Origin: Haemophilus haemolyticus
GTDB lineage: Bacteria > Pseudomonadota > Gammaproteobacteria > Enterobacterales > Pasteurellaceae
Direction of reading: 5' to 3'
Assembly: GCF_003351405.1 (NCBI RefSeq)
Contig: NZ_CP031240.1
Span: forward strand, 1,240,001 to 1,304,000
Length of the DNA stretch: 64,000 nucleotides
Shown here: positions 31,449 to 34,600 of the stretch, piece after piece
How positions within the stretch are numbered: position 1 is the stretch's first letter
Layout: every line of letters begins with the position of its first letter
Translations under genes and position numbers: made by a program
Notes under the pieces: generated by a model
Database searches by the model: none
Seen by the model: only the letters and a program-made list of their open reading frames with translations
Told to the model about the DNA's origin: nothing

Positions 31449-31544
31449 ATGAGAACATTTGACAAGCAAGCAAGCAAGCAAGCAAGCAAGCAAGCAAGCA
31501 AGCAAGCAAGCAAGCAAGCAAGCAAGCAAGCAAGCAAGCCATAA
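31449..31544 (+). CDS. Phase-variable leader ORF carrying the CAAG tract
   Basis: The ATG at 31449 with TAGGA upstream (AGGA at 31436-31439) opens MRTFD and then the peptide repeat KQAS encoded by the tetranucleotide tract. With the 19 copies present here it stops at TAA 31542-31544 after 31 codons. With one copy fewer (or two more) it would read on to TGA 31639-31641, which overlaps the adhesin ATG. With one copy more it would stop at TAG 31577-31579. No phase fuses it to the adhesin frame, so a regulatory leader role is inferred. Confidence 0.5.
   Translation: MRTFDKQASKQASKQASKQASKQASKQASKP
31463..31538 (+). repeat. Tetranucleotide simple repeat, CAAG x 19
   Basis: Nineteen perfect CAAG units (equivalently GCAA) span 76 bp, followed by CC. 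Tetranucleotide tracts of this length mark slipped-strand phase-variable loci in H. influenzae. The tract lies 99 bp before the adhesin ATG at 31638, inside the leader ORF. Confidence 0.97.
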
Positions 31545-31637
31545 ATCATCTCTCTTTTCTCCAAACAATCAATGGGTAGAGAGTATGAACAAAAATCTAT
31601 TTTTCTCCCCTTTCTTTATCATGTTTGGAGCTATTCT

Positions 31638-34600
31638 ATGAATCATATTTTTCGCGTTATTTGGAATACATCTATTCAATCTTGGTCAGTTGTATCAGAA
31701 TTATCTAGAGCACATAAAAAACAAAGCGTATCAAATCCACAATCAAGTGCGGTGAATTTATCTGGAGTTTTTAAATTATCGGCAATTGCCCTTTCTTTTT
31801 TTACGGCTTCCAGTGTTTATGCGGCAGTTTCTGATAATGATTTTACTGCTTTACAAGGTCGTGTTGCAGCATTAGAAAACCAACATACATCTCTTAATGA
31901 TGCTGTGACAGCGATTAACAATAAGTTAAATGCTACATCGGTAGCTATTGGCGAAAGTGCCGTAGCATCAGGCAATCATACAACCGTGGTGGGTGCAGGT
32001 GCGAAGGCAGTAGAGGATAATTCGGTAGCTATTGGTAAAAGTGTCGTAGCATCAGGCATTAATGCAACAGCCATGGGGACAGAAGCTAAGGCGGCAGGCG
32101 CAGGTTCGGTTGCGATTGGTAAAGACGCAACTGCAGATAAAATTCCAACTGCTGGTGACGTGCTTGGGACTCCTGGTTCTGAAAGTGCCATTGCCATTGG
32201 TAATGGGGCAAAAGCGCAAAATGATAGAGCAATTGCCATTGGTAAGAGTACAGTGGCAACTGGACAAAGTTCGATTGCTTTTGGTGAAAACGCTAAAGCG
32301 GAGGGAATGCAGAATGTGGCGATTGGTTTTAATAGTGAAGCGACAAGGGCATTTGGAGTTGCAATTGGCGTAGATGCTAAAAGTAATGCGACTAATGGAT
32401 TGGCTTTGGGATATGATTCAAAAGTAACTGGTCTTGCGGGTACAGCGATTTCAAATCACGCAAAATCAGAGGGAGACTATTCTGTTGCTATCGGTGATGA
32501 TGCAGAATCTAAAGGAAGGGAATCTTTAGCCTTAGGTTCAAGCGCAAAATCAGAGGGAAATCACTCTTTTGCTGCCGGTGCAAGGGCAGATGCCAAGGCA
32601 GCTGCTGCGACAGCTATCGGTTTACGTGCAGAAGTAATGGATGAAAAGTCTATAAGTTCGGTAGTTATTGGCACAGATTCTAAGATTACTAATTCACGAT
32701 CGAGTGTCGCTATTGGGCAGAGTGCAGAAAATACTTCCTCTTCATATAGCGTGGCATTAGGGGAATCTGCACTTAATACAGCTTCAAACCTAGGTGTAGC
32801 CATTGGTTCTGAAGCAAAAAATGACACATCTGTACGTGGTACAGCTATAGGTTTTCAAGCGAATACAAAAGGACAAGATACGATTGCTTTTGGTACGCAA
32901 GCAACTAGTAGTGCTGATCGTGCAGTGTCTATTGGTATTAAGTCTATTGCAAAAGCAAGAGATAGTTATGCAATTGGTACGCAAGCGTCCAGCTTATCTA
33001 GCGAAGCGGTGGTCATTGGCAATCGTGCTGCAATTAATGAAAAAGCAGCTAACTCTATTGCTATTGGTTCTGGCGCATATATAGGTGTTCAAAATGCTAC
33101 ATCTGAAGTGGGTAATACACCTGCAAAAGTGTCTCAACCTTTAGAACGAATCACCAAAGATAACAATGAAATTTCTGTTATTACACAGGCTGAATCTCAC
33201 AAATATGATTGGTCTATGGCAATTGGCCACGATTCACGTGCGTATGGCTACCAAACGTTAGCATTAGGTAATAATGCAGAAGCCTATGATACGAACAGTA
33301 CAGCAATTGGTATGGGGTCCAGTGCAAAAGGTCATTTTTCCAACGCATTAGGTTATTTGGCAAAAACAGAGGGTAAGTATGCTACAGCGATAGGTTATAA
33401 CTCTGTAGCTGCTGCAGAATCTGCCACAGCAGTGGGCACACGTGCCGTAAGTAATTTGAAAGGTGCCGTTGCTCTAGGTAGTGATTCTCGTACTTCTGTA
33501 GATAAAAACGTATTTGGTTATGATACGGTGGAAAATGCTAATAAGACATTAGAGAATCTGTTGAGTGCTGAGGAAAAAGAAAAATATAATAGATTACTAG
33601 ATGAAATTAGGGAACTTGAGACAGAGCGTACCACATTAGAAAATAATTTGATTGCTTACATTACTGATGCAGCTAATGATCCTGAAGGTAAAACAGATGA
33701 GCAGAAAGACGCTATAAAAACTGAGAAAGCACGTTTAGGCGCATTAGTTACAGCAAAACAAGAAGAAATCAAAACGAAACAAACCGAAGCCAACAATATG
33801 GTGAAAGTGTGGCGTTCGACAGGGGCAGCCGTATCTGTGGGTGATGTGGGAACAGGATTAACACGTCAAATTACGAATGTAGCCGCTGGTACAGAAGATA
33901 CAGATGCAGTGAATGTGGCGCAGTTGAAATCCTTAGCTGTAGCAGGTATTCAATTTTCTGCCAATGATTATAATGATCAAGATTCTAGCGATGCGATGAA
34001 AGCTAAGATCATTAAAACACAGATCGGTGGTATTTTACCTATTCAAGGTAAATCAAGTACAGTGTATGGTTCAGTAAATGCTCCTACTACTGCATATTCA
34101 TCAGATAATTTAATTACATTTAATGATAGCGGTACATTGCGTATAGGTATGTTAAAAGCACCGACTTTCTCTAGCATTAAATTAGGTGATACAAATTCAA
34201 AAGTATTAAACGTTGATAATGGAAAATTAAAGTTTGATGGAAATGAAGTTGTAACTACAAATAATTTTGAAACTATTTTTAATGGATTATATGAATTCAA
34301 AAATGGGCTGAAGACTACAACAGAAAATAATAAAACAATTGTTAGTTTAGATAAAGATAGTCTTAAAAATGATCCTTCTTTTAAAGGCGAAAAAGGTGAA
34401 GATGGCAAATCTGCATACGAAGTATGGAAAGCGCAAGCAGGTAATGAAAATAAATCAGAAACTGATTTCACTAAGGCGATAAAAGGCGAAAAAGGTGATA
34501 AAGGTGAAGATGGCAAATCTGCATACGAAGTATGGAAAGCGCAAGCAGGTAATGAAAATAAATCAGAAACTGATTTCACTAAGGCGATAAAAGGCGAAAA

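What the first reader, a model, noticed from the sequence alone, without database searches (positions are those of the whole stretch)
31449..31641. Phase-variable leader ORF that reaches the adhesin start codon in only one repeat phase
The CAAG x19 tract lies inside a short ORF (ATG 31449, AGGA upstream), not inside the adhesin frame. TAA at 31542-31544 blocks any fusion of an upstream start with the adhesin frame, so the usual direct on/off frame switch cannot operate. Instead, three phases give three leader ends. With 19 copies (this sequence) it ends at TAA 31542. With 18 or 21 copies it ends at TGA 31639-31641, overlapping the adhesin ATG as ATGA. With 17 or 20 copies it ends at TAG 31577. 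Only the second phase delivers terminating ribosomes to the adhesin start, which has its own GGAG. This predicts phase-variable translational coupling, or alternatively leader translation altering mRNA stability. I do not know of a described adhesin switch of this form.
Basis: partly seen in the sequence, partly recalled or inferred. Interest (0 to 1): 0.85.

Follow-up and report, generated by a model that had tools for sequence, protein, structure and literature searches.

The report
Repeat-bearing leader before an adhesin gene
In this Haemophilus-type genome a four-base repeat of the kind that switches adhesin genes on and off sits in a separate short reading frame just before an adhesin gene, where its length sets where ribosomes stop and so may decide whether the adhesin's hidden ribosome-binding site is opened.

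Summary
The ATGA overlap is weak evidence: Met-Asn starts always carry it, and its frame is open in 18% of shuffles. Three results add weight. (1) A congener (G002) has the same upstream region, leader start and tract at the same site, but there the tract runs straight into an adhesin signal peptide: the locus is a mosaic. (2) The adhesin's GGAG is predicted to pair in a perfect 9-bp helix with the leader tail; 30 of 20,000 tail shuffles do this, none of 146 other starts, though 8 of 146 do if G-U pairs count. (3) lex2A-lex2B has the same design: CAAG leader ending 13 nt before lex2B, closed SD, published ON phase matching. Best reading: lex2-like, phase-dependent unmasking of a ribosome site. 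Two other CAAG-leader adhesins have no coupling phase, and a relic without function remains possible. Nothing was tested in vivo.

The parts
31279..31310 (+). intrinsic terminator stem behind the upstream cstA-like gene, followed by a T-rich tail
   Evidence: 14-pair stem; 1 found against 0.1 expected in shuffles. Separates the adhesin unit from cstA.
31329..31385 (+). 10-bp repeats TTTACATTTC/TTTACATTCC; on the other strand tandem GTAAA-N5-GTAAA (CpxR-box-like)
   Evidence: also in G002 with about two fewer units (alignment). The regulator is inferred.
31428..31433 (+). TATAAC, -10-like; TATAAT in G002
   Evidence: by eye; not reported by the promoter scan. If used, the transcript would start near 31440, past the AGGA, a problem for leader initiation.
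31436..31439 (+). AGGA, putative leader Shine-Dalgarno
   Evidence: AGGATTTTAATCTATG identical in G002
31449..31544 (+). leader ORF as sequenced (19 copies, 31 aa)
31463..31538 (+). (CAAG)19 tract
31542..31544 (+). TAA, leader stop at 16/19/22 copies; in the adhesin frame
31559..31567 (+). 5' arm CTCCAAACA, predicted to pair with the adhesin SD arm
31577..31579 (+). TAG, leader stop at 17/20/23 copies; between the two helix arms
31585..31641 (+). phase-independent mini-ORF (18 codons) ending at the same TGA
   Evidence: by eye; lies between the helix arms
31622..31630 (+). 3' arm TGTTTGGAG holding the adhesin SD GGAG (31627-31630)
31639..31641 (+). TGA, leader stop at 15/18/21 copies, overlaps adhesin ATG
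31638..36551 (+). trimeric autotransporter adhesin, 1637 aa: ESPR, YadA head, stalk, anchor
   Evidence: PF13018, PF05658, PF05662, PF03895, each above its cut-off

Best explanation
The locus is a mosaic related to a classical phase-variable adhesin gene. It shares upstream region, ribosome site, start codon and CAAG tract with that gene (shown by comparison with G002), but behind the tract stands an ESPR-type adhesin with its own start, so the shared start opens only a short leader ORF. That the in-frame form is the older one is inferred. The adhesin's SD is predicted to be locked in a helix with the leader tail (computed). In the phase that ends at TAA 31542 (the sequenced state) ribosomes leave before the helix and the adhesin stays low. 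In the phase that ends at TGA 31641 ribosomes run through the helix, open it and stop on the adhesin start, giving high expression by coupling. In the TAG 31577 phase the stopping ribosome covers the 5' arm, giving an intermediate level. The last three steps are inferred; the design matches lex2A-lex2B.
For: Leader start and tract are shared with G002, where they lead into an adhesin frame of 964 codons (in the sequenced state out of phase). DNA identity is 81% over 439 bp up to the tract and 85% over 1239 bp at the 3' end. cstA and mraZ are 204-209 bp apart in 8 of 10 genus genomes; only G000 and G002 have a longer gap, filled by an adhesin. No promoter-like site was found between tract and adhesin on the + strand. 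SD helix of 9 Watson-Crick pairs: 30 of 20,000 tail shuffles reach it; the longest among 146 other starts is 6. SD unpaired probability 0.011, matched or undercut by 1 of 146, and 0.006-0.028 in eight fold contexts. With a modelled ribosome at TAA (3' edge +8 or +12) SD stays at 0.010; at TAG it rises to 0.22-0.24. lex2: leader stop 13 nt before lex2B in one phase only, lex2B SD unpaired 0.017; that phase agrees with the published ON count of 12 GCAA (PMC6479036 Table 1, passages) if GCAA units are counted as; the primers printed there match L018 (by eye).
Against: If G-U pairs are allowed, 8 of the other 146 starts also reach a helix of 9 or more over the SD. Overall fold energy is ordinary: z -1.57, 15 of 200 shuffles as stable, and z +0.67, 74 of 100, for the longer stretch. 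With the tail shuffled, 236 of 2000 sequences close the SD as much, so closure as such is weak evidence. With the ribosome edge at +15 even the TAA phase opens the SD partly (0.16-0.18). Coupling frame open by chance 18%. ATG 31585 could feed ribosomes in every phase. The two other CAAG leaders before ESPR adhesins (L023, L128) have leader stops 30-141 nt upstream in all phases and more open SDs (0.22, 0.60). The tail has no match in 140 family genomes but its own, so selection on frame or helix could not be tested. The visible -10-like box would exclude the leader AGGA from the transcript.
Confidence: 0.43

Rival explanations
1. Relic: the tract and leader are leftovers of the replaced adhesin; the new adhesin is translated from its own SD whatever the copy number, and the tract varies without effect.
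For: Mosaic structure; GGAG with 7-nt spacing; ATGA is automatic and the open frame likely by chance; tail not found elsewhere; two other CAAG leaders lack a coupling phase.
Against: SD in a perfect 9-bp helix with the leader tail; 19 uninterrupted copies are kept; a similar layout occurs in three genera and in lex2.
Confidence: 0.3
2. The tract acts through length or mRNA level, not frame: leader translation, spacing or tract length changes transcript stability or initiation in a graded way, as reported for the AGAT tract of uspA2.
For: uspA2 AGAT tract 132 bp upstream, mRNA differing up to 3.37-fold (PMC7302503 passages); L023 and L128 place CAAG tracts 159 and 87 nt upstream of ESPR adhesins with no coupling phase.
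Against: Here the tract lies in an ORF whose start leads a real adhesin frame in G002, and no promoter-like site was found behind the tract.
Confidence: 0.16
3. Phase-independent supply of ribosomes: ATG 31585 (coupling frame) or ATG 31572 (adhesin frame, 22 residues longer) starts translation behind the tract, so the leader phase does not matter.
For: Both ATGs and frames are open.
Against: No clear SD (by eye); 31585 and its upstream stretch are inside the predicted hairpin; an N-terminal extension in front of ESPR would be unusual (inference).
Confidence: 0.08

Closest known systems
lex2A-lex2B of Haemophilus (phase-variable LOS glycosyltransferase)
   Same: CAAG/GCAA tract in a separate short leader ORF; only one phase brings the leader to the target start (stop 13 nt upstream); target SD predicted to be paired with the last leader codons
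   Different: Target is a glycosyltransferase, not an adhesin; leader stop 13 nt upstream instead of overlapping; lex2A is longer (117 aa with 29 copies). Published ON/OFF counts seen only as passages of PMC6479036.
Classical CAAG/GCAA/CAAA adhesins: TabA/TahA of H. influenzae biogroup aegyptius, YadA-type genes of Power et al. 2009, the G002 allele
   Same: Trimeric autotransporter with a tetranucleotide tract at its 5' end; same leader start in G002
   Different: In the G002 allele and in the GCAA-tract TabA/TahA rows the tract is seen or listed in the adhesin CDS (PMC3309571 Table 2, passages); PMC2651432 (section 3.14 and passages) lists CAAG and CAAA tracts with YadA-type genes, one of them (CAAA) 225 bp upstream of the gene. 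Here the tract is in another ORF.
UspA2 of Moraxella catarrhalis
   Same: Outer membrane adhesin-type protein with a tetranucleotide tract upstream of the CDS
   Different: Reported to act on transcript level in a graded way (PMC7302503 passages); no leader ORF mentioned in the passages I saw.
Translational attenuators / SD-occluding coupled leaders (erm-type leaders, coupled operon genes; recalled)
   Same: Ribosome position on a leader decides whether an SD-locking helix is open
   Different: Would be switched by DNA repeat slippage, not by a drug or amino acid.

Membership tests
Trimeric autotransporter adhesin | ESPR signal, YadA-type head/stalk and C-terminal anchor | tested here: met
   PF13018, PF05658, PF05662, PF03895 above cut-off
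Classical SSR on/off adhesin (tract in the adhesin frame) | one repeat phase joins the upstream start to the adhesin frame | tested here: not met
   TAA 31542-44 in the adhesin frame behind the tract; the open frame runs on from the tract in G002
lex2A-lex2B-type leader switch | tract inside a separate short ORF upstream of the target | tested here: met
lex2A-lex2B-type leader switch | one phase only brings the leader stop to the target start | tested here: met
   gaps of -4/93/58 nt in the window for 18/19/20 copies; 168/13/173 nt in lex2 for 28/29/30 copies
lex2A-lex2B-type leader switch | target SD closed by pairing with the leader's end | tested here: met
   (prediction only; 236 of 2000 shuffled tails close the SD as much)
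lex2A-lex2B-type leader switch | target expression depends on leader phase | not testable with these tools
   needs reporters
lex2A-lex2B-type leader switch | homology of leader or target | tested here: not met
   targets differ (adhesin domains, against Glyco_transf_25); the leaders share only the repeat by eye, no alignment run. Works like lex2, not a lex2 member.
UspA2-type upstream tract | tract length alters transcript level | not testable with these tools
   no expression data

The most novel reading that the evidence does not exclude
A three-level adhesin rheostat: repeat slippage sets where leader ribosomes stop relative to an SD-locking hairpin, before it (low), in its loop (middle) or on the adhesin start (high). 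It arose when recombination swapped the adhesin's front part but kept the old switch, turning a frame switch into a translational attenuator.
Probability: 0.25. Interest if true: 0.7.

Novelty: new variant of a known kind. Interest (0 to 1): 0.5.

Why it matters
If true, phase variation of surface adhesins need not sit in the adhesin frame, so genome surveys that call ON/OFF from in-frame tracts would misread such loci. It would also show how a contingency switch can survive replacement of the gene it controls, and link lex2-type leader coupling to adhesins.

Tried and rejected
Direct frame fusion of leader and adhesin: excluded by TAA 31542. ATGA as evidence by itself: rejected, automatic for Met-Asn starts, frame open in 18% of shuffles. 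Promoter spacing by the tract (TTGACA at 31459-31464 touches the tract): rejected, the scan reports no partner at 16-18 nt. Rfam at the leader: none of the 3 matches in the window lies there. Relatives of the tail: none in 140 family genomes except its own. Relatives in genome contigs gave 4 loci in Gallibacterium at 30-34% identity, not used further. Paper searches for coupled phase-variable leaders gave nothing on point in what was listed (titles and abstract starts; 1, 0, 0 and 12 of 56 papers listed). Population data on copy number at this locus could not be had with the collections used.

The tract survey is not exhaustive: one search scored at most 10 candidates per genome in 61 genomes; one search needed 7 copies and a base other than G before the tract in 140 genomes. 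Of its 49 rows two are the same tract (L014, L064), leaving 48. Five stretches fetched for it (L121, L132-L135) gave no row, nor did L029 and L030, having no run of 6 exact copies; one short match (G051) was not fetched. 'Classical' there means at least 80 open codons in one frame directly behind the tract. The 146 background starts are ORFs of 150 or more codons with an SD of 4 nt or more, not filtered for overlap.

Full report
What was checked. No copy number can fuse the leader with the adhesin, since TAA 31542-44 stands in the adhesin frame behind the tract. The downstream gene is an intact 1637-aa trimeric autotransporter with ESPR, YadA heads, stalk and anchor. It lies between a cstA-like gene, followed by a terminator, and mraZ.

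An adhesin that begins Met-Asn has ATGA at its start, so a TGA overlapping the ATG needs no selection. The coupling frame over the 98-nt tail is open in 18.4% of 20,000 dinucleotide shuffles. ATG 31585 lies behind the tract in the coupling frame and ends at the same TGA, so terminating ribosomes need not depend on phase.

Where the leader comes from. In 8 of 10 genomes of the genus cstA and mraZ are 204-209 bp apart; only the window genome and G002 have a longer gap, filled by an adhesin gene. G002 shares the terminator, the 10-bp repeats, the AGGA, the start (ATG AGA against ATG CGA, both Arg) and a CAAG tract of 13 copies. There the tract leads straight into a signal peptide and a 964-codon open frame, out of phase in the sequenced state. 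This is the common arrangement: of 48 distinct CAAG tracts surveyed, 30 open directly into a frame of at least 80 codons. Window and G002 proteins share 75% identity over the last 320 residues, 45% over window residues 352-1125 and 28% over 48-458; DNA similarity on the 5' side ends in the tract. So the two alleles share the switch and the rear of the adhesin and differ in its front part. That the window form is the derived one is an inference from how common the in-frame form is.

A hidden ribosome site. Folding pairs CUCCAAACA (31559-31567) with UGUUUGGAG (31622-31630), which holds the adhesin's GGAG. Only 30 of 20,000 shuffles of the tail give a Watson-Crick helix that long over the SD. Among 146 other gene starts with an SD of 4 nt or more, from the window and 240 kb of the same genome, the longest such helix is 6 pairs, and 1 of 146 has an SD as closed as 0.011. 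Counter-results: with G-U pairs allowed 8 of the 146 also reach 9 or more; the fold as a whole is not exceptional (15 of 200 shuffles as stable; z +0.67); 236 of 2000 shuffled tails close the SD as much by other pairings.

Phases and the helix. TAA 31542 lies before the helix, TAG 31577 between its arms, TGA 31639 beyond it. With a crude ribosome footprint the SD stays closed at TAA (0.010 with 3' edge +8 or +12; 0.16-0.18 with +15) and opens to 0.22-0.24 at TAG; at TGA the ribosome would cover the SD and stop on the start codon. This gives a low/middle/high order for 19, 17/20 and 18/21 copies. It is a model, not a measurement.

The known parallel. In G008 (L018) a CAAG tract of 29 copies lies in lex2A; in that phase the leader ends 13 nt before lex2B, in the two others 168 and 173 nt before it. 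Counted as GCAA this is 30 units, the same phase as the published ON count of 12; PMC6479036 Table 1 (passages) gives 12 ON, 10 and 11 OFF, and its two primers match L018 (by eye). The lex2B SD is also closed (0.017) by pairing with the last lex2A codons; 1 of 146 background starts is that low. G004 keeps the same leader-to-lex2B phase with only two copies. PMC3116884 (passages) names lex2A among genes with tetranucleotide repeats and lex2B as a glycosyltransferase gene. I found no text in the library that states the coupling (searches; passages); earlier lex2 papers are recalled, not read.

Other CAAG leaders before ESPR adhesins. L023 (G010, tract 159 nt upstream) and L128 (G128, 87 nt) have the same layout in two other genera, but their leaders stop 80-141 and 30-80 nt before the adhesin in the three phases, and their SDs are more open (0.22, 0.60). 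This speaks for the layout as a recurring one and against overlap coupling as its general purpose.

Verdict. Real and correctly described; a mosaic locus whose best-supported mechanism is a lex2-like, phase-dependent opening of a hidden ribosome site (0.43, lowered slightly from 0.45 after the G-U control was written in), with a relic without function (0.30) as the main rival. New variant of a known kind.

Noticed in passing
window 31340-31385; L034, L036, L042, L046-L048, L051, L052, L054-L057 upstream of adhesin starts: GTAAA-N5-GTAAA (either strand), matching the reported CpxR consensus GTAAA-N(4-8)-GTAAA (PMC8964730 passages), lies within 300 nt upstream of 12 of 29 ESPR-type starts in the genus against 1 of 144 background starts (exact matches; 13 against 7 with one mismatch). 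The genome has a CpxR-like regulator (L149, best NCBIfam hit CpxR, 300.6 bits, below the 341 cut-off). The adhesins are partly orthologous, so not 29 independent cases. A Cpx-controlled adhesin group is a testable idea.
   Followed up: partly
window 31329-31385 and G002 (L064): The 10-bp array is 20 bp longer in the window than in G002 (alignment), so it may itself vary in length upstream of the leader.
   Followed up: no
window 34383-35961: 14.7 copies of a 108-bp (36-aa) repeat inside the adhesin, 97% alike: possibly stalk-length variation.
   Followed up: no
L077 (G004): lex2A has only two CAAG copies and sits in the phase that reaches lex2B, so it may be locked on.
   Followed up: partly
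L023 1600-1640: A terminator-like inverted repeat lies between the CAAG tract and the adhesin of G010; two of three leader phases read through it, which would allow phase-dependent attenuation of transcription (by eye, no scan run).
   Followed up: no
window 27451-27509 (-): SECIS_3 element at the junction of two minus-strand ORFs, 27504-28136 and 25029-27455: probably one selenoprotein gene split at its TGA by the ORF lister.
   Followed up: no
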